Part shown: positions 2,969-32,563 of the stretch, one piece after another
Layout: each line of letters begins with the position of its first letter
Numbering within the stretch: the stretch's first letter is position 1
Assembly: GCA_944385795.1 (NCBI GenBank)
Contig: CALWYP010000110.1
Location: 1-39,934, forward strand
Source of the DNA: an uncultured Oscillospiraceae bacterium
GTDB taxonomy: Bacteria; Bacillota; Clostridia; Oscillospirales; Oscillospiraceae
Length of the DNA: 39,934 nucleotides
Reading direction: 5' to 3'
Translations under genes and position numbers: made by a program
The notes under the pieces: model-generated
Told to the model about the DNA's origin: nothing
Database searches by the model: none
The model's input: the letters and a program-made list of their open reading frames with translations, nothing else

Positions 2969-3379
2969 TCATTTTTCAATCGTGAGGTTGTCTATGCCGT
3001 TCGCCTCGAACTCGCTGAAGTATTCGTCCATGCGGGTGTTGAGCTCGTTCATGTCGTCGGGGTCGGTGTGTTCAAGGCTCATGTCCCGGCGCGCAAGCTC
3101 CTCGGCGAGTATATCGTAGAAGACGGCGTCCTCATAGTCGGCTATGGCCTCGTGTATGCCGCCCTCCTCAAAGGCCTTGGAGGGGAAGGTGTGCCCATAC
3201 CAGGTGGTGTACAGCTCTTTCATACCCTGCTTGGCGCAGCAGCTAAAGAGCTTCTCCTGTATGTCGTCGTAGTCCGTGAAACGGTCCGACTCGGCGCGGG
3301 TGGAGTTGAGTACCCAGTTGCCTATATACACCATGTCCAGCAGACGCCGGAACTCCTTGGTCGTGAGCTCGATATTCAT
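2969..3379 (-). CDS. conserved hypothetical cytoplasmic protein
   Basis: This encodes 136 residues. I place the start at ATG 3379 (MNIELTTKEF), which has GGGAGG upstream; the frame is open further but without a ribosome site. The protein is acidic and soluble with no membrane segment. Recognisable phrases are FRRLLDMVYIGNWVLNS and a C-terminal EYFSEFEANGIDNL. I recall similar hypothetical proteins in Clostridia but no function. A possible -10 TATACT lies at 3420-3425 on this strand. Confidence 0.72.
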   Translation of the reverse strand: MNIELTTKEFRRLLDMVYIGNWVLNSTRAESDRFTDYDDIQEKLFSCCAKQGMKELYTTWYGHTFPSKAFEEGGIHEAIADYEDAVFYDILAEELARRDMSLEHTDPDDMNELNTRMDEYFSEFEANGIDNLTIEK

Positions 3380-3529
3380 GTTCCAGACCTCCCATCCGTT
3401 AGAGCTTCTTTCCCGCATACAGTATAGCACATAGTGCAGGGAAATGCCACATGAATTTCAAAAATTCATAATTTGCGCCCGGCGTATATATCCCGCCCCG
3501 GGTGGCAGACTGTAGCTGAGGTGTATGCT

Positions 3530-3964
3530 ATGGTAAAGCTGACGGAAAAGCAGTACGCGGAGCTATACAAACGGCTGACGCCGCGCTCGCGCGCCTGGCC
3601 GAACGCGCTGAGGGCCTTCGTGTGCGGCGGGGCGCTGTGCGCCCTGGGCGAGCTGATATGCCGGGCCTGGGCTTTCACGGGGGAGGACGCGGGCGCGTGG
3701 ACGAGCATAAGCATGATAGCGCTGGGGGCCCTGGCCACCGCCCTGGGCGTATACGACAGCTTCGCCCGCTTCGCCGGGGCCGGCGCGCTGGTGCCCATAA
3801 CGGGCTTCGCCAACGCCGCGGCCAGCCCTGCGCTGGAGTTCAAGACCGAGGGCATGATAACGGGCCTCGCCGCAAAGCTCTTCACCATAGCCGGGCCGGT
3901 GGTGGTATATGGGACGCTGGCCGGCACGCTGTACGGCGCGGCGCTGTGGGCGGCGGGGTTTTAG
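3530..3964 (+). CDS. spoVAC: stage V sporulation protein AC (solitary)
   Basis: This encodes 144 residues. The ATG at 3530 has GAGGTG six bases upstream; the frame is open for 19 more codons, but without a ribosome site. The family signature is clear: YDSFARFAGAGALVPITGF, then FANAAASPALEFKTEG and AAKLFTIAGPVVVYG. SpoVAC is an integral inner-membrane component of the SpoVA channel that moves dipicolinic acid into the forespore and out on germination. Four hydrophobic stretches fit this. The usual neighbours spoVAD and spoVAE are absent, so this is either a dispersed gene or an extra paralogue. A 7-bp inverted repeat at 3451-3469 lies upstream; I could not identify a convincing sigma-G promoter. 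Confidence 0.93.
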   Translation: MVKLTEKQYAELYKRLTPRSRAWPNALRAFVCGGALCALGELICRAWAFTGEDAGAWTSISMIALGALATALGVYDSFARFAGAGALVPITGFANAAASPALEFKTEGMITGLAAKLFTIAGPVVVYGTLAGTLYGAALWAAGF

Positions 3965-3973
3965 CCCCGGCGC

Positions 3974-5212
3974 TCAGGCGCGGCCATACGGAAGCCCGCG
4001 GAGGGCGCTGTACGGCGCGGCGTCCCTGACGCCGGAGATCTCACGCGAACGGCCGAGGACTACGGCGTCGGGGCCGAAGCGTTCCCGAAGGCTGTCTATG
4101 GCGCGGTCCAGGCGGCGCAGGGCGTCCTCTCGCTCGCAGCCGGGGAAGAAGCCCCGCTGCTCGTGCGGGGAGTAGAGCAGGGCCTCGGCCCTCACGGAGA
4201 GGCTGCGCAGGGGGTCCGGCCAGCGGTGGCTGGAGCCCAGCACTGCGGAGGCGGCGCATATCAGGGCGCGCGTGGAGTCCGTCGGGCTCTCGAGGGGCGT
4301 GCGGCGGCTTATCCAGGCGAGAGAATCCGCGTCGCGCAGCCCTACGGCCAGCACCTGGGCGCGGGCGCCTATCCGCCTCAGGCGCGCGCCCACCTTGTCG
4401 CACAGCGCCGTGACGACGGGGATGGCGTCGTCCATTGAGCGCAGGTCGCGCGGCGCCGTAACGCCGTTGCCCACGGACTTGGCCGCGGGATATTCGTCCT
4501 CGCGCAGGACTTTCGCGCCGTCCAGCCCGTTGGCGTAGTCGTGCAGCAATTCGCCGTGCGCCCCGAAGGCGCTCCGCGCCGTCTCTATGGGCATCGCGGC
4601 CAGGTCCCCTATCGTGCGCACGCCCATTGCGGCCAGCCGCCTCTGCGTGGACGGGCCGGCGTACAGCAGCGCCCCTACGGGCAGGGGCCAGACCATATCC
4701 CGCCAGTTTGCGCGGCTTATCTCCGTCACCGCGTCCGGCTTCCTGTAGTCCGAGCCCAGCTTGGCGAAGACCTTGTTGAAGGATACGCCGACGCTGACCG
4801 TCAGCCCGACCTCGCGCTTCACGCGCCGGCGTATCTCGTCGGCGCAGCGAGCGCCTTCCCCGGCGCGCAGGCAGCCCGTGATGTCCAGCCAGCTCTCGTC
4901 CAGCCCGAAGGGCTCGCAGCGGTCGGTGTAATCGGCGTATATACGGCGCACGGCGCGGGCGCAGGCCAGGTAGCGCTCAAAGTGCGGCGGGACGACGATG
5001 AGCTCCGGGCAGGCCTGCCTGGCCTGCCAGATGGCCATGCCGGTCTTCACGCCGGCCAGCTTCGCCTCCTGCGACTTGGCCAGGATTATCCCATGCCGCC
5101 GCTCCACGTCCCCGCCCACGGCCATAGCCTTCCCCCTCAGCCGGGGGTTATACAGCTGCTCTACGCTCGCGTAGCAGGCGTTTATATCCGAATGTAAAAT
5201 GACTCTGTCCAT
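3974..5212 (-). CDS. dinB: DNA polymerase IV (Y-family translesion polymerase)
   Basis: This encodes 412 residues starting MDRVILHSDINACYASVE. The catalytic acidic residues are visible: D9 in HSDIN and D105-E106 in GLDESWLD, with the palm/finger phrase GVSFNKVFAKLGSDYRKPDA and a little-finger domain after about residue 240. It copies past damaged template bases at the replication fork. No clear C-terminal beta-clamp motif (QL.LF type) is visible in the last 20 residues. The start is fixed by the family N-terminus, yet there is no ribosome site and the promoter -10 element ends only eight bases upstream of the ATG, suggesting a leaderless message. It converges on spoVAC with a 9-base gap and no terminator. 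Confidence 0.95.
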   Translation of the reverse strand: MDRVILHSDINACYASVEQLYNPRLRGKAMAVGGDVERRHGIILAKSQEAKLAGVKTGMAIWQARQACPELIVVPPHFERYLACARAVRRIYADYTDRCEPFGLDESWLDITGCLRAGEGARCADEIRRRVKREVGLTVSVGVSFNKVFAKLGSDYRKPDAVTEISRANWRDMVWPLPVGALLYAGPSTQRRLAAMGVRTIGDLAAMPIETARSAFGAHGELLHDYANGLDGAKVLREDEYPAAKSVGNGVTAPRDLRSMDDAIPVVTALCDKVGARLRRIGARAQVLAVGLRDADSLAWISRRTPLESPTDSTRALICAASAVLGSSHRWPDPLRSLSVRAEALLYSPHEQRGFFPGCEREDALRRLDRAIDSLRERFGPDAVVLGRSREISGVRDAAPYSALRGLPYGRA

Positions 5213-26929: not shown

Positions 26930-29524
26930 TTACAGCACAAATTCCCGTATCTCTTTTTCAACCGCGCGCACCTCTTCCTCAAAGTGCTGGGAACTTACCC
27001 TTGTCGCGCCCTGGCCCAGGATTATAAGCTGTTCAGTGGTATCGGAGGTGACGACGCGGGTGCGGAAACGCCGCGCGATTTCGTGCGTGGCCTTTTCTAT
27101 GTACATGTCCGCCGTCTCGGCCTCCTTGGTGTAGACGACGTAGAGGTTGTGGTAGCGCTCCACCTCGCGTTCGCCGCCCTTGACCTTGTAGGCGTCGAAT
27201 ACGAGTATGGGCACGCAGTGCGTATAGCCGGCGTAGTTGCAGAGTATGTCCATGAGCCTGCGCCTCGCGCTCTCCATGCTCTTGGCGGCGAGGGCGTTCA
27301 GCTCGTCCCAGGCGAAGATCACGTTGTAGCCGTCCACAAGCAGGTGCTCGGGCCCGCTGTCCGCGGGCTTTGGGCGCGCTTTCTGATTCGCGGGGGCCGG
27401 GGCGGGAGGGCGCCTGGGGGTGCGCATGGCCTGGCTCCCGTCGCGCTTTATGGGCCCGTAGGTGCGCTCGAATATGGCCATCAGCTCCTTGTCGGCCGCC
27501 AGCGTGCCGCGGTATTCGGCGGCCCTCGCGGCCCTTACGGCCGTCTCGGCCTCGCTCTCGCGGCTCAGCCGTTCGGCCCTGGAGAGCACGCCGGGCAGGT
27601 GCATACGCCCGGGCACCTCGTCCCAGCGCACCAGCACGCCCGCGCCGTGGCTGCAAAAAACGCTGTCGGCGCTGTTTGCCGTGTCCGCGCCGGCGTCGTA
27701 GCCTATCCCGGCGATGACCTCCGCAGCGTTGTGGCAGCGCTCATAGCCGCCGGGCAGGCAGCTCAGCTGGCCGCGCCCGCGCGTATAGGCGGCCAGCTCC
27801 CGGGCGTAGGAGCGCATCAGGCTGACCGGCGCGCGGCCGGTTATGACGCAGCCGTCCGCGCCGGTCTCGGGCGGCGCGAACTCCGCCGAGAGCCTGGGCA
27901 TGTCCGCGAGGGCCCTGCCCAGGTTTTCCGCCGGGACGCGAAGCGTGAAGTCGTACCAGGGCTCCAGGAGCACGCAGCCGCCCTTCGCCGCGGCCGTCAT
28001 CAGCCCCTGACGGACGGCGCGGTAGGTCGCCTGGCGGAAGTCGCCGCCCTCGGTGTGCTTGGGATGCGCCCGCCCGGCGGCAAGGCTTATCTTTACGTCC
28101 GTGAGCGGCGAGCCCGTGAGCGGGCCCACATGCGTCTTCTCGGCCAGATGGGTGAGTATGAGCCTCTGCCAGTTGAGGGCGAGCTCGTCCGTGGGGCAGC
28201 CGGAAGAGAGCTGTACGCCGCTGCCCGGCTCGCCAGGGGAGAGCACGAGGTGCACCTCGGCGTAGTGGCGCAGGGGCTCATAGTGGCCCACGCCCTCTAC
28301 GGTGACGCCTATCGTCTCCTTATACAGTATCCCGCCGTCGTCGAAGCCCAGCTTGAGCCCGAAGCGGCGCTCGGCGAGGCTGGAGAGCACCTCGAGCTGC
28401 ACCTCGCCCATTAGCTGCACAAAGATGGCGCCCACGCCCTCGTCCCAGGCTATATGCAGCTGCGGGTCTTCCTCGCCGAGCTCCCTGAGCTGGGCGAGCG
28501 CCGTGTGCGCGTCCGCCCCGGCGGGCAGGGTTACGCGGTAGCGCAGCACGGGGGAGAGGGAGGGCGCTGCGGTGTCCGGCTCGGCGCCCAGGCCCTCGCC
28601 GGCGTAGGCCCCGGCTATGCCGGTCACGGCGACGGCCATGCCCGGCAGGGCGCGGTTCACAAGGACGTATTTCGCGCCGGAATAGAGCCTGAGCTGGTCG
28701 GCCTTGCCGCTCCAGCTCCTGCGCGCGTCCGCGCGCGAGGAGAGCGGGGCCTTCACGGCGAGCTCGCCGCCCGTCACCTTGAGCCAGGCGAGGGACGCGC
28801 CGTTTTCGTCCCGCGTGACCTTGAAGACCCTTGCGCCGAATTCCCCAGCGTCCTGGACCGGCAGCGTCCAGCGCCGGAGCGCGTCCAAAAGCGCGTCGGC
28901 CCCTTCGGCCTTGAGCGCCGAGCCGAAGCAGCAGGGGAAGAGCTCGCGGCGGCTTACCGCCGAGGCTATCTGCGCGTCCGTGGGCTTTCCGCCCCCGGCT
29001 ACCGTCTCGAGCAGCTCCTCGCTGCACAGCGCGAGGTCGTCCAGGGAATTGGGGTCGGAGAGGTCTATGCAGCCGGAGCCGAAGCGCCGCCTCAGCTCGG
29101 CCATGCGCGCAAACCTGTCCGCCCCGGCGAGGTCCATCTTGTTTACAAAAATGAATACCGGCACCCCATAGCGCCCAAGCAGGCGCCAGAGCGTTTCGGT
29201 GTGGCTCTGTATGCCGTCCGTGCCGCTGACGACCAGCACGGCGTAGTCCATGACCTGCAGCGCCCGCTCCGCCTCGCTGGAGAAGTCCACATGTCCCGGC
29301 GTGTCCAGCAGCGTGAACTCCGCGTCAGGCAGCCGCAGCAGGGCCTGCTTTGAAAATATGGTTATGCCCCGGGCGCGCTCCAGCGCGTCGGTGTCCAGGA
29401 AGGCGTCGCGGTGGTCCACCCGGCCGAGCTTCCTCAGCGCCCCGGCCCTGTAGAGCAGCGCCTCGCTCAAAGTGGTCTTGCCCGAGTCTACATGGGCCAG
29501 CAGGCCCACGCACAAGCGCTTCAC
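26930..29524 (-). CDS. TetM/EF-G-like translational GTPase fused to a Rae1 (YacP)-type NYN endonuclease domain
   Basis: This encodes 864 residues from GTG 29524 (MKRLCVGLLAHVDSGKTT), the usual family N-terminus, with AGGA nine bases upstream; ATG 29587 and 29572 in frame lack a ribosome site and 29587 overlaps a TATAAT. Residues 1-~700 follow the TetM/EF-G order: P-loop AHVDSGKT, RGITI, DTPGHVDF, NKMD, beta-barrel, and domains III-V. The domain IV/V tract DTANSADSVFCSHGAG marks a TetM-like branch not proven to give tetracycline resistance. After a Pro/Ala linker, residues ~726-864 match Rae1/YacP: LLVDGYNVI (D731), VFDAYKV (D777), ETADMYIEK (E803, D806), TSDTTEQ (D828) and GQGA. Rae1 of Bacillus subtilis cuts mRNA in the ribosomal A site. 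Confidence 0.9.
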   Translation of the reverse strand: MKRLCVGLLAHVDSGKTTLSEALLYRAGALRKLGRVDHRDAFLDTDALERARGITIFSKQALLRLPDAEFTLLDTPGHVDFSSEAERALQVMDYAVLVVSGTDGIQSHTETLWRLLGRYGVPVFIFVNKMDLAGADRFARMAELRRRFGSGCIDLSDPNSLDDLALCSEELLETVAGGGKPTDAQIASAVSRRELFPCCFGSALKAEGADALLDALRRWTLPVQDAGEFGARVFKVTRDENGASLAWLKVTGGELAVKAPLSSRADARRSWSGKADQLRLYSGAKYVLVNRALPGMAVAVTGIAGAYAGEGLGAEPDTAAPSLSPVLRYRVTLPAGADAHTALAQLRELGEEDPQLHIAWDEGVGAIFVQLMGEVQLEVLSSLAERRFGLKLGFDDGGILYKETIGVTVEGVGHYEPLRHYAEVHLVLSPGEPGSGVQLSSGCPTDELALNWQRLILTHLAEKTHVGPLTGSPLTDVKISLAAGRAHPKHTEGGDFRQATYRAVRQGLMTAAAKGGCVLLEPWYDFTLRVPAENLGRALADMPRLSAEFAPPETGADGCVITGRAPVSLMRSYARELAAYTRGRGQLSCLPGGYERCHNAAEVIAGIGYDAGADTANSADSVFCSHGAGVLVRWDEVPGRMHLPGVLSRAERLSRESEAETAVRAARAAEYRGTLAADKELMAIFERTYGPIKRDGSQAMRTPRRPPAPAPANQKARPKPADSGPEHLLVDGYNVIFAWDELNALAAKSMESARRRLMDILCNYAGYTHCVPILVFDAYKVKGGEREVERYHNLYVVYTKEAETADMYIEKATHEIARRFRTRVVTSDTTEQLIILGQGATRVSSQHFEEEVRAVEKEIREFVL

Positions 29525-29641
29525 GCGCCCCGGTCCTATCTCCTGTGCTCCCGTAAGAAGCTCCCCTCTCATTCTGGCTGCGGCCATTATAGCACAGTTT
29601 TCCCGCTAAGTACACCCGCCGCCGCGCCGCCGGCATTGGGC

Positions 29642-29670
29642 TTGACAAATACCCCATGGGGGTATATTAT
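29642..29670 (+). promoter_or_regulatory. csoR-copA-copZ promoter with CsoR operator
   Basis: TTGACA (29642-29647), 17 bases, then TATTAT (29665-29670). The spacer contains TACCCCATGGGGGTA (29650-29664), the GC-tract inverted repeat typical of CsoR sites. Apo-CsoR bound here would occlude RNA polymerase; Cu(I) releases it. Confidence 0.9.
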
Positions 29671-29706
29671 ACTGGCAATGGGATATTACTAGAAAGGAGC
29701 CCCGGC

Positions 29707-30012
29707 ATGGAAGAGAAGGGATGTTGTTTCCTCCACGATAAAAAGGAGCGCTCCCCGGAGGAGTACCGGAGCCTTATAAACCGGCTCAGCCGGATAGAGG
29801 GCCAGATACGCGGCATACGCGGCATGGTGGAGAAGGGCGCCTACTGCCCGGACATACTTGTGCAGAGCGCGGCGGTGACGGCGGCGATGAACGCCTTCAA
29901 CCGCGAGCTTTTGAGCCAGCACATACGCACCTGCGTGGCGAACGACATACGCGCCGGCCGGGACGAAACGGTTGAAGAGCTCTTAAAGACGCTGCAAAAG
30001 CTGATGAAATAG
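29707..30012 (+). CDS. csoR: copper-sensing repressor CsoR
   Basis: This encodes 101 residues; the ATG at 29707 has AAGGAG seven bases upstream. The all-helical DUF156 fold is evident ([19 protein letters not shown]). The Cu(I) ligands are C47 in AYCPDIL and H72/C76 in SQHIRTC, the C-H-C set that separates CsoR from formaldehyde (FrmR) and sulfide (CstR) sensors. Two extra Cys and a His near the N-terminus (GCCFLH) are unusual. It controls its own operon through the TACCCC..GGGGTA site. Confidence 0.95.
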
Positions 30013-30034
30013 CCTCGTAAGGGAGAGTGGAAGC

Positions 30035-32563
30035 ATGAGGCAGTTTAACGTGACTGGAATGAGCTGCGCCGCCTGTTCGGCGAGGGTTGAAAAGGCGGTG
30101 AACCAGGTGCCGGGCGTGACGGGCTGCTCGGTCAGCCTGCTTACGAATTCCATGGGCGTGGAGGGCGCGGCCTCCAGCGAGGATATAATAAAGGCCGTGG
30201 AGGAAGCGGGCTACGGCGCGAGCGAGAAGGGCGCGGCGGCGAAGGGCGCCGCGGGCGGAAAAATGGCCGGGGCCGAGGAGGCGCTGGCCGACCACGAGAC
30301 GCCCGCGCTCAAGCGCAGGCTGATCTGGTCCGTGGGCTTCCTCGCGGCGCTCATGTATTTCTCTATGGGCGCGATGATGTGGCGCTGGCCGCTGCCGGGC
30401 TTTTTAGAGCACAACTATATGGCCCAGGCGCTTATCCAGCTCTACCTCACGGCCATCGTGATGATCATCAATAGGAAGTTCTTCATATCCGGCTTCAGGG
30501 GCCTCGCGCACGGCGGCCCGAATATGGACACCCTCGTCGCCATGGGCTCGGGCGCGGCCTTCGCCTGGAGCAGCTGGGAGCTGTTCCGCATGACCGCGGC
30601 CGGGACGCCGGCGGAGCAGATGGAGATTATGCACTCCGGCTTCTACTTTGAGGCCGCCGCCATGATACTCACGCTGATTACCGTCGGCAAGATGCTAGAG
30701 GCGCGCAGCAAGGGCCGGACGACGGACGCGCTCAAGAGCCTGATGAAGCTCGCGCCCAAGACCGCCACGGTCATACGCGGCGGCCAGGAAACAGAAGTTG
30801 GCGTGGACGAGGTGAGGGAAGGCGACATCTTCGTAGTGCGCCCGGGCGAGAGCATCCCCGTGGACGGCGTGGTCATAGAGGGCCGCAGCGCCGTAAACGA
30901 GAGCGCCCTGACCGGCGAGAGCATACCCGTGGACAAGGCCGCCGGGGACGGCGTCTCCGCCGCGACGATAAACCAGAGCGGCTTTATCAAGTGCCGCGCC
31001 ACGCGCGTGGGCGAGGACACGACGCTGAGCCAGATAATCCAGATGGTTTCCGACGCCGCGGCCACCAAGGCCCCTATCGCCAAAGTGGCGGACAGGGTTT
31101 CGGGCGTCTTCGTCCCCGCCGTCATAGGGATCGCGGCAGTGACGGCCATAGCCTGGCTGATTGCGGGCGAGGACTTCGGCTTCGCCCTTGCGAGGGGCAT
31201 AAGCGTGCTGGTGATAAGCTGCCCCTGCGCGCTGGGCCTGGCCACGCCGGTCGCAATTATGGTCGGCAGCGGCATGGGCGCGAAGAACGGCATACTTTTT
31301 AAGACCGCGGCCTCGCTCGAGGAGGCGGGCAAGGTAAATATAGCCGTCCTCGACAAGACCGGCACAATAACCGCCGGGGAGCCCAGGGTCACGGACGTAA
31401 TCCCGGCCCCGGGCGTGAGCGAAGCCGGGCTGATGGCCCTCGCCCTCGCGCTCGAGCAAAAGAGCGAGCATCCCCTCGCCAGGGCGGTAATGCTCCGCGG
31501 CGCCGAGCTCGGCCTGGCCGCGGCCGGGGTGGATTCCTTCGAGGCCCTGCCCGGCAGCGGCGTTATCGCAAGCTCCGGCGGCGAAGAGCTCGCCACCGGC
31601 AGCCGCAGGTTCATAGAGACGAAGGCGGAGGTCCCGGCCGCGATAGCCCAGGCGGCGGACAGGCTCTCCGCCGAGGGCAAGACCCCGCTGTTCTTTGCAA
31701 GGGGCGGGCGGCTCTACGGCGTCATAGCCGTGGCCGACGTCATAAAGGAGGAGAGCCCCGAGGCGGTAAGGCAGCTGCGGAACATGGGCGTCCGCGTGGT
31801 CATGCTGACCGGCGACAACGAGCGCACGGCGAAGGCCATCGGCGCCCAGGCCGGCGTGGACGAGGTCATAGCGGGCGTACTGCCCGACGGGAAGGAGAGC
31901 GCGATACGCTCCCTCATGAAGCAGGGCAAGGTGGCCATGGTTGGCGACGGCATAAACGACGCGCCCGCCCTCACGCGCGCGGACGTAGGCATAGCCATAG
32001 GCGCGGGCGCCGACGTCGCCATAGACGCGGCGGACGTGGTGCTCATGAAGAGCCGCCTCACGGACGTCCCCGCCGCGATACGCATGTCCCGCGCCACCCT
32101 GCGCAATATACACGAGAACCTGTTCTGGGCCTTCTTCTACAACACCATAGGCATACCCGTGGCCGCGGGCTGCTTCGTCTGGGCGGGCCTTACGCTCAAC
32201 CCGATGATAGGGGCGGCCGCCATGAGCCTCAGCAGCTTCTGCGTCGTGACAAACGCCCTCCGCCTCAACCTTTTCAAGATGTACGACCCGGGCCGCGACA
32301 GGCCGGCGAAGCGCGCGCCCGCGCCCGCGGCCCCGGCCGTGGAGGAGGCCGCGCCCGTCACGATGCGCATAGAGGGCATGATGTGCGAGCACTGCGAAAA
32401 CGCGGTGAAGTCCGCGCTCGAGGGCGTCGGGGGCGTGCTCTCCGCGCGTGCGGACGCCGCCGCCGGGACGGCGGAAATCACCATGGAGCCCGGCACGGAT
32501 CTGGAAGCCCTGAAGGAGGCCGTGACCAGGTCCGGGTACGTCTTCAAGGAATTTATAAGCTAA
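30035..32563 (+). CDS. copA: copper-exporting P1B-type ATPase with N- and C-terminal HMA domains
   Basis: This encodes 842 residues; the ATG at 30035 follows GGGAGAG, 22 bases after csoR. The N-terminal HMA has [14 protein letters not shown] (C11, C14). The core follows: TALTGES-type actuator, [11 protein letters not shown] (C396, C398), [11 protein letters not shown] (D440), [16 protein letters not shown] and late helices with YN..IP and MSLSS, all Cu(I)-pump marks. An Ala/Pro linker then leads to a second HMA at the C-terminus, [12 protein letters not shown] (C784, C787), an uncommon placement. It exports Cu(I) from the cytoplasm. Confidence 0.95.

What the first reader, a model, noticed from the sequence alone, without database searches (positions are those of the whole stretch)
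26930..29524. Translational GTPase fused to a Rae1/YacP-type A-site endonuclease
One continuous frame joins a TetM/EF-G-like ribosomal GTPase to a C-terminal domain whose motifs (VDGYN, FDAY, ETAD..IE, SDTTEQ..GQGA) match Rae1. Rae1 of B. subtilis is established as an endoribonuclease that acts in the ribosomal A site; TetM/EF-G factors bind the same site. Fusing them suggests a ribosome-rescue or translation-quality factor that docks by GTP and cuts the mRNA. The acidic residues expected for catalysis are all present. The fusion may be annotated in databases simply as TetM-like.
Basis: partly seen in the sequence, partly recalled or inferred. Interest (0 to 1): 0.78.

Follow-up and report, generated by a model that had tools for sequence, protein, structure and literature searches.

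The report
Ribosomal GTPase fused to mRNA cutter
This bacterial gene makes one protein that joins a ribosome-type GTPase to an RNA-cutting domain like Rae1; the combination was noted in print in 2015, is widespread, mostly occurs where the separate Rae1 gene is missing, and looks more like a translation quality-control factor than a tetracycline-resistance protein, though its function is untested.

Summary
One uninterrupted minus-strand frame (26930-29524 with the GTG start favoured by the family alignment; 29587 with the upstream ATG) encodes an EF-G/TetM-like GTPase followed by a NYN_YacP (Rae1) domain (Pfam 4e-46; PDB YacP 2e-24). GTPase motifs and five acidic residues of the nuclease are conserved in relatives. 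The architecture is not new: Atkinson 2015 (PMC4342817) reported it in ten Clostridiales species and suggested a new resistance mechanism. Added here: (i) it is in 105 of 291 sampled genomes of the window's class and nearly excludes stand-alone Rae1 (3 genomes with both, 31 expected); (ii) fused NYN domains group in one clade, so a single origin is likely; (iii) the GTPase subfamily is far from acquired Tet(O)/Tet(W) and has a different domain-IV tip (H-x-K-H-T-E-G-G-D-F-R, where TetM has Y-S-P-V-S-T); unfused members exist; (iv) none of 105 distinct fusions has the EKLRRG-type tail motif in which R166P inactivates B. subtilis Rae1. Best explanation: a self-targeting, ribosome-dependent mRNA endonuclease that replaced Rae1. 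Ribosome binding, cutting and order of action are inferred, not shown; both modules would use the A site, so they probably act in turn.

The parts
26930..29524 (-). whole fusion gene from the GTG start that the family alignment favours (864 aa); the longest ORF starts at ATG 29587 (885 aa, numbering used in this report)
29586..29594 (-). TGCTATAAT, extended -10-like sequence overlapping the upstream ATG (read by eye; the scan reports no promoter here)
   Evidence: by eye; one search lists no minus-strand promoter
28871..29512 (-). GTPase (G) domain, residues 26-239; P-loop AHVD[SA]GKTT, RGIT, DTPGH and NKxD in 80 of 80 full-length fusions (window included)
28349..28552 (-). EF-G domain III, residues 346-413 (just under the Pfam cut-off)
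27992..28330 (-). EF-G domain IV, residues 420-532
28034..28075 (-). domain IV loop III, residues 505-518 GRAHPKHTEGGDFR, aligned with GLYYSPVSTPADFR of TetM/TetO
27728..27973 (-). EF-G domain V (EFG_C), residues 539-620
27590..27769 (-). conserved extension, residues 607-666 (GY..C, SVFC.HG, W655, H663), also present in unfused relatives
27458..27589 (-). predicted long helix, residues 667-710; its end carries most of the conserved DKELMAIFERTYG motif
27347..27457 (-). linker, residues 711-747, presumably flexible (pLDDT under 50 at 722-741)
26942..27343 (-). NYN_YacP (Rae1-type) nuclease domain, residues 749-882; acidic residues D752, D798, D827, E831, D849; no EKLRRG-type tail

Best explanation
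It is a chromosomal translation-quality factor: a ribosome-dependent mRNA endonuclease that carries its own docking GTPase. An EF-G/TetM-like GTPase of a distinct subfamily binds a ribosome whose A site is empty or blocked, and its domain IV (conserved H-x-K-H-T tip) probes or clears the decoding centre. On GTP hydrolysis domain IV leaves, and the Rae1-type domain, tethered by a long helix and a flexible linker, enters the vacated A site and cuts the mRNA, which commits the ribosome to rescue and the mRNA to decay. It does the work of stand-alone Rae1 in the lineages that carry it, with the GTPase taking over targeting from the Rae1 tail. Shown: architecture, intact active-site residues, conservation, near mutual exclusion with stand-alone Rae1, absence of the tail motif. 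Inferred: ribosome binding (from the fold), cutting (from Rae1 homology), order of action, trigger.
For: Domain matches. G motifs in 80 of 80 full-length fusions; five NYN acidic residues in 112 of 113 rows (106 of 107 distinct sequences), the exception L012 being cut off before them; the same five are invariant in 23 of 23 stand-alone sequences and kept in two divergent fusions looked at separately, L191 and L192. Exclusion: class sample of 291 genomes, 105 fused, 87 with stand-alone, 3 with both, 31.4 expected; phylum sample of 398, 23 fused, 185 stand-alone, 0 with both, 10.7 expected. Fused NYN domains in one clade, 100/99. Tail motif around R166 in 19 of 23 stand-alone and 0 of 105 distinct fusions; R166P is listed as a loss-of-function allele (PMC6613710, passages). 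AlphaFold model with an EF-G-family body, mean pLDDT 88.4, then helix, linker, NYN domain.
Against: No experiment and no direct evidence of ribosome binding or RNA cutting by any member. Rae1 and domain IV would compete for the A site. The placement of the NYN domain in the model is undetermined (pTM 0.71). Three genomes of one genus have the fusion and a second NYN_YacP match. 17 of 122 class genomes with the GTPase have it unfused and 7 of these have no NYN_YacP match, so the GTPase has some role without the nuclease. 43 of 105 distinct fusions keep a longer C-terminus (155 residues or more) without the motif, and 4 of 23 stand-alone sequences lack the motif too. The exclusion test treats related genomes as independent.
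Confidence: 0.6

Rival explanations
1. Tetracycline resistance by a new mechanism: a ribosomal protection protein with an added RNase activity (the suggestion of Atkinson 2015).
For: The best NCBIfam score is to the tet_protect model (340.5 bits); by sequence the best PDB relatives of domains III-V are TetO and TetM; some copies are annotated as resistance proteins.
Against: 340.5 bits against a cut-off of 775, and 393-468 bits for eight unfused relatives and one other fusion scanned. The loop that dislodges the drug in Tet proteins (as stated in PMC4342817) is replaced by a different, conserved sequence. Tet(O)/Tet(W) lie about 7 changes per site away. One gene copy in most of the 105 fused class genomes; a match over at least 80% of the query in only 2 of 72,556 plasmid records. 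No susceptibility data were available here.
Confidence: 0.12
2. The nuclease acts on ribosomal or transfer RNA rather than mRNA, as a ribosome-inactivating or rRNA quality-control enzyme delivered by the GTPase.
For: This domain had been proposed to take part in rRNA and tRNA maturation (as cited in PMC4342817, passage); a flexible linker could place the domain elsewhere on the ribosome.
Against: The characterised Rae1 is described as an A-site mRNA endonuclease (PMC12320835 and PMC6613710, passages); the fusion mostly occurs where stand-alone Rae1 is missing, which favours the same substrate.
Confidence: 0.12
3. The two halves are only loosely linked: the GTPase does an unrelated translational job (as its unfused relatives must) and the nuclease is a passenger that works as ordinary Rae1.
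For: Unfused GTPases of the subfamily are in 17 of 122 class genomes that have it, 10 of these 17 with a separate Rae1; the linker is long and variable (29-70 residues in 79 sequences).
Against: Fusion kept over many families of the class with both active sites conserved; no fusion has the Rae1 tail motif, so the domain may not work alone.
Confidence: 0.16

Closest known systems
Tet proteins with YacP-like NYN domain of Clostridiales (Atkinson 2015, PMC4342817)
   Same: Same architecture in, as far as named relatives tell, the same group of bacteria; this protein is a member of that kind.
   Different: That paper counted ten species and proposed a resistance role; here the subfamily is set apart from acquired Tet(O)/Tet(W), and its relation to stand-alone Rae1, its likely single origin and the missing tail motif are added.
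Rae1/YacP of Bacillus subtilis (PDB 5mq8, 5mq9)
   Same: NYN_YacP domain, matched over 134 positions at about 7e-26, with the acidic residues of the family.
   Different: Rae1 is a separate protein with a C-terminal EKLRRG stretch; here the domain is fused and stops after the core.
TetM/TetO ribosomal protection proteins
   Same: G domain and EF-G-type domains III to V; G motifs intact.
   Different: Domain IV tip H-x-K-H-T-E-G-G-D-F-R in place of Y-Y-S-P-V-S-T-P-A-D-F-R, an extra C-terminal segment, a nuclease, and a large evolutionary distance.
Unfused GTPases of the same subfamily (L173-L188, mostly about 640-660 aa); the Ligilactobacillus salivarius pMP118 gene as a more distant one
   Same: Same kind of domain IV tip and the first part of the same extension.
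   Different: End after the extension, without the helix-linker-NYN part; pMP118 has S-N-V-H-T-V-G-G-D-F-R at the tip.

Membership tests
Rae1/YacP endoribonucleases (NYN_YacP) | match to NYN_YacP over the curated cut-off | tested here: met
   157.5 bits against 24.6
Rae1/YacP endoribonucleases (NYN_YacP) | conserved acidic residues (taken as the active site by position; not mapped here onto the catalytic residues of the literature) | tested here: met
   D752, D798, D827, E831, D849 conserved in fused and stand-alone sets
Rae1/YacP endoribonucleases (NYN_YacP) | C-terminal tail motif of stand-alone Rae1 (EKLRRG in B. subtilis) | tested here: not met
   0 of 105 distinct fusions, 19 of 23 stand-alone; a feature of the stand-alone form, not of the domain family
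Rae1/YacP endoribonucleases (NYN_YacP) | ribosome-dependent mRNA cleavage in the A site | not testable with these tools
   needs biochemistry
Translational GTPases, EF-G/EF2 family | G domain motifs and domains III, IV, V | tested here: met
   (domain III just under its Pfam cut-off)
Acquired tetracycline ribosomal protection proteins (TetM/O/W class) | score over the curated NCBIfam cut-off (tet_protect NF012153, 775 bits) | tested here: not met
   340.5 bits
Acquired tetracycline ribosomal protection proteins (TetM/O/W class) | domain IV loop III as in TetM, TetO, TetW (YYSPVSTPADFR) | tested here: not met
   RAHPKHTEGGDFR; H508 and K510-R518 identical in 80 of 80 fusions
Acquired tetracycline ribosomal protection proteins (TetM/O/W class) | confers resistance | not testable with these tools
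   needs MIC measurements
Tet-NYN fusions of Clostridiales (Atkinson 2015) | Tet-like trGTPase followed by a YacP-like NYN domain in a clostridial genome | tested here: met
   the window's own name is not given, its class is judged from named relatives; the species list of that paper (Additional file 8) was not seen

The most novel reading that the evidence does not exclude
A one-protein ribosome rescue machine: the GTPase evicts whatever sits in a blocked A site and, on GTP hydrolysis, hands the emptied site to its own tethered nuclease, which cuts the codon; the unfused GTPases are the separate clearing half of the same pathway in bacteria that keep Rae1 apart.
Probability: 0.3. Interest if true: 0.8.

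Novelty: new member of a known kind. Interest (0 to 1): 0.5.

Why it matters
If the fusion works as inferred, it ties Rae1-type mRNA cutting to a GTP-driven ribosome factor and so offers a handle on how such cutting is targeted. It also warns that a common gene of Clostridia is at times labelled tetracycline resistance. The survey turns a remark of 2015 into testable predictions: order of action, role of the H-x-K-H-T tip, and replacement of the Rae1 tail by the GTPase.

Tried and rejected
A zinc site in the extension (C618, C645, H647, H663) was considered and dropped: in the 61 sequences printed, H647 is N, Q or G in some and C618 is A in one. A conserved operon partner was sought with a crude ORF picker: the largest neighbour cluster covered 11 of 79 loci, so none was found, but the picker can choose wrong-strand frames. 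The window's neighbours are pyruvate kinase, M20 and M16C peptidases, a CsoR-like repressor, a heavy-metal ATPase, a lipoate ligase and a sigma-54 activator. A mobile origin was thought unlikely: 2 of 72,556 plasmid records hold at least 80% of the query, on replicons of 252 and 518 kb; 2 of 50,697 phage records do too, both unannotated 'Bacteriophage sp.' from faeces that may be bacterial DNA (not followed up). Docking on a 70S ribosome was not possible. In the Foldseek search against the PDB no TetM or TetO chain is among the 50 rows shown, which by title or are EF-G-type and EF-2 chains, with query TM-scores of 0.33-0.57; by sequence TetO/TetM do rank high. The first tail comparison was wrong because I had cut the fused rows at the window's last column; it was redone on whole frames and on distinct sequences. 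Single-origin support is uneven: the GTPase tree of 26 rows gives 100/100 for fused against unfused, but with Tet(O), Tet(W), pMP118 and two more fusions (31 rows) the fused clade has only 67/19 and the unfused 44/87. In the NYN tree one stand-alone sequence, L128, lies inside the fused clade, and the bootstrap had not settled. Rows dropped: 33 of 113 fused frames were left out of the full-length alignment as incomplete. The trees were thinned by identity: 22 of 112 fused NYN rows plus L190; 8 of 80 full-length fused GTPases plus L190 and L192, with 16 unfused genes. L192 was left out of the NYN tree because my pattern did not find its VDSYN; one search shows the aspartate is there. Two unfused genomes (G239, G293) were not fetched.

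Counting rules for the survey: fused class genomes are the 122 with a match to the extension profile minus 17 with an unfused frame. For 11 of the 105 (G060, G100, G140, G146, G157, G165, G194, G254, G258, G288, G332) the NYN row was cut from the list, so fusion is inferred from the frame length and the genome's NYN match (G194 and G288 were then read). In G280 the two halves lie on different contigs, and G140's frame is incomplete; both are counted as fused. The 84 stand-alone-only genomes are the remainder of the 189 with NYN_YacP; for part of them the frame length was not seen, and G304 has only a sub-cut-off match. The second match in G193, G257 and G298 is taken as stand-alone without seeing its row; G190 has two fused copies. 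In the phylum sample 185 is 208 minus 23; 3 of the 208 are below the cut-off. Eight genomes, the window's own among them, are fused in both samples. I counted by reading the lists; only the Fisher tests were scripted.

Full report
Observation. The window holds one uninterrupted minus-strand frame, 26930-29587, of 885 codons and a stop. Numbering here follows that frame.

Domains. Pfam gives GTP_EFTU 26-239, EFG_III 346-413 (26.7 bits against 27), EFG_IV 420-532, EFG_C 539-620 and NYN_YacP 749-882 at 4e-46. By sequence the PDB relatives of the first part are EF-G (8e-60 at best), TetO and TetM (1.3e-56), and of the second part B. subtilis YacP (5mq8/5mq9, about 7e-26 with the last 140 codons alone). 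The AlphaFold model from 76 sequences has mean pLDDT 88.4 and pTM 0.71. It shows an EF-G-type body, a helix 667-710, a stretch 722-741 of very low confidence, and a folded NYN domain. The 50 Foldseek rows shown are EF-G-type and EF-2 chains (by title or), with no TetM or TetO among them, at query TM-scores of 0.33-0.57. Where the NYN domain sits relative to the body is not determined.

The fusion is a family. Across the 142 loci fetched by then, 114 have one frame matching both halves; two are the window itself, and six pairs are the same gene reached by two routes. In 80 full-length fusions, window included and all distinct, the P-loop, RGIT, DTPGH and NKxD motifs are kept. The acidic residues D752, D798, D827, E831 and D849 are present in 112 of 113 rows, that is 106 of 107 distinct sequences; L012 lacks four because it is cut off. 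The same five are invariant in 23 stand-alone sequences, and two divergent fusions (L191, L192) have them too, in the contexts VDAYN and VDSYN. This is not decay of either half.

Where it occurs relative to Rae1. The window's own genome (87% complete) has one NYN_YacP match, the fusion. Of 60 genomes (own included, from genus to order), 26 have a match, each in a frame of 855 residues or more; one of them has a second, sub-cut-off fragment at a contig end. The window's class is Clostridia judging by named relatives; the genomes themselves are unnamed. In 291 genomes of the class, 189 have NYN_YacP and 122 have the extension that marks the GTPase subfamily. By my count 105 are fused, 84 have only stand-alone Rae1, and 3 (one genus) have the fusion and a second match; 31.4 would be expected to have both if independent (Fisher p 7e-17). 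In 398 genomes of the phylum, 23 are fused (8 of them also in the class sample), 185 have stand-alone Rae1 and none has both; 10.7 expected (p 3e-7). Genomes are related, so the p values overstate; but both states occur within families f45, f46, f50 and f51, so it is not one split. How each number was counted, and what was not seen, is in Tried and rejected.

Origin. Fused NYN domains form one clade with 100/99 support among 46 rows, with one stand-alone member (L128) inside; the bootstrap had not settled. The GTPase halves split fused from unfused at 100/100 in 26 rows, but only 67/19 once distant rows are added. One fusion event is the simplest reading, not a proven one.

Not an ordinary Tet protein. 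The best curated model is tet_protect with 340.5 bits against a cut-off of 775. In TetM and TetO the tip of domain IV reads GLYYSPVSTPADFR; here it is GRAHPKHTEGGDFR, and H508 and K510-R518 are identical in 80 of 80. Sixteen unfused relatives from 15 genomes keep H-x-K-H-T-x-G-G-D-F-R; the divergent fusion L191 has HARHTEGGDFW. Atkinson 2015 states that these loops are what interacts with and dislodges tetracycline. Tet(O) and Tet(W) are separated from the whole subfamily by about 7 changes per site at 100/100. Only 2 of 72,556 plasmid records hold at least 80% of the query, and no conserved neighbourhood was found. A resistance role is therefore less likely, though there are no MIC data.

What the GTPase may replace. 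In the PDB chain B. subtilis Rae1 has EKLRRGD near its end, and R166 is the second arginine if the chain is numbered as the gene. R166P and a small deletion at nucleotides 469-473 were isolated among alleles classed as loss of function of rae1 in an efp suppressor screen (PMC6613710, passages seen). A motif of this kind follows the core in 19 of 23 stand-alone sequences and in 0 of 105 distinct fusions; 62 of the 105 end within 155 residues, the window's among them, and 43 keep a longer C-terminus of other sequence. The inference is that the tail helps stand-alone Rae1 to work on the ribosome and that the GTPase has taken this over. The suppressor alleles do not say what the tail does.

Mechanism and its gap. 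Rae1 is described as an A-site mRNA endonuclease (PMC12320835, PMC6613710, passages), and EF-G/TetM-type factors put domain IV in the same place (established knowledge of these families, recalled). They cannot occupy it together. The most economical scheme is sequential: domain IV probes or clears the A site, GTP is hydrolysed, the factor backs off, and the tethered nuclease enters. The predicted 44-residue helix (about 65 Angstrom if straight, at 1.5 per residue) and a spacer of 29-70 residues between the FERTYG motif and the nuclease (79 sequences) make this reach possible but do not prove it.

Prior art. Atkinson 2015 (PMC4342817; [quoted passage not shown] Ten searches of the open library (of only the first 20 of 70 and 438 papers were listed) showed me no other paper on the fusion and no experiment on it. 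Leroy 2017 and Condon 2018 on Rae1 were not held, and either may mention it. Hence 'new member of a known kind' with moderate interest.

Noticed in passing
window 29656-32563 (+): Divergent to the fusion gene lie a CsoR-type metal-sensing repressor and a heavy-metal P-type ATPase, with a strong promoter-like site (TTGACA-17-TATTAT) at 29642-29670.
   Followed up: partly
L193 (Ligilactobacillus salivarius pMP118), 2992-4926: An unfused TetM-like GTPase on the megaplasmid next to rpsN, annotated as tetracycline resistance, with a domain IV tip (SNVHTVGGDFR) near to that of the fusion family.
   Followed up: partly
L178, L179 and L121 (genome G178): One genome carries two unfused copies of the GTPase and a stand-alone Rae1.
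   Followed up: no
L128 and L188 (genome G299): A stand-alone NYN_YacP that groups with the fused ones, in a genome whose GTPase is unfused: a possible secondary split or a relic of the state before fusion.
   Followed up: partly
L191 (genome G288): A very divergent fusion of 841 residues with P-loop ASADTGKTT, tip HARHTEGGDFW and VDAYN in the nuclease, in a genome of 2 contigs.
   Followed up: partly
MT835563.1 and MT835514.1 (phage collection): Two unannotated 'Bacteriophage sp.' records from human faeces hold most of a fusion gene; possibly mislabelled bacterial DNA.
   Followed up: no
L189 (genome G277): A fusion in a single-contig genome whose open frame is only 618 residues and has no P-loop or domain IV tip match: frameshift, decay or assembly error.
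   Followed up: no
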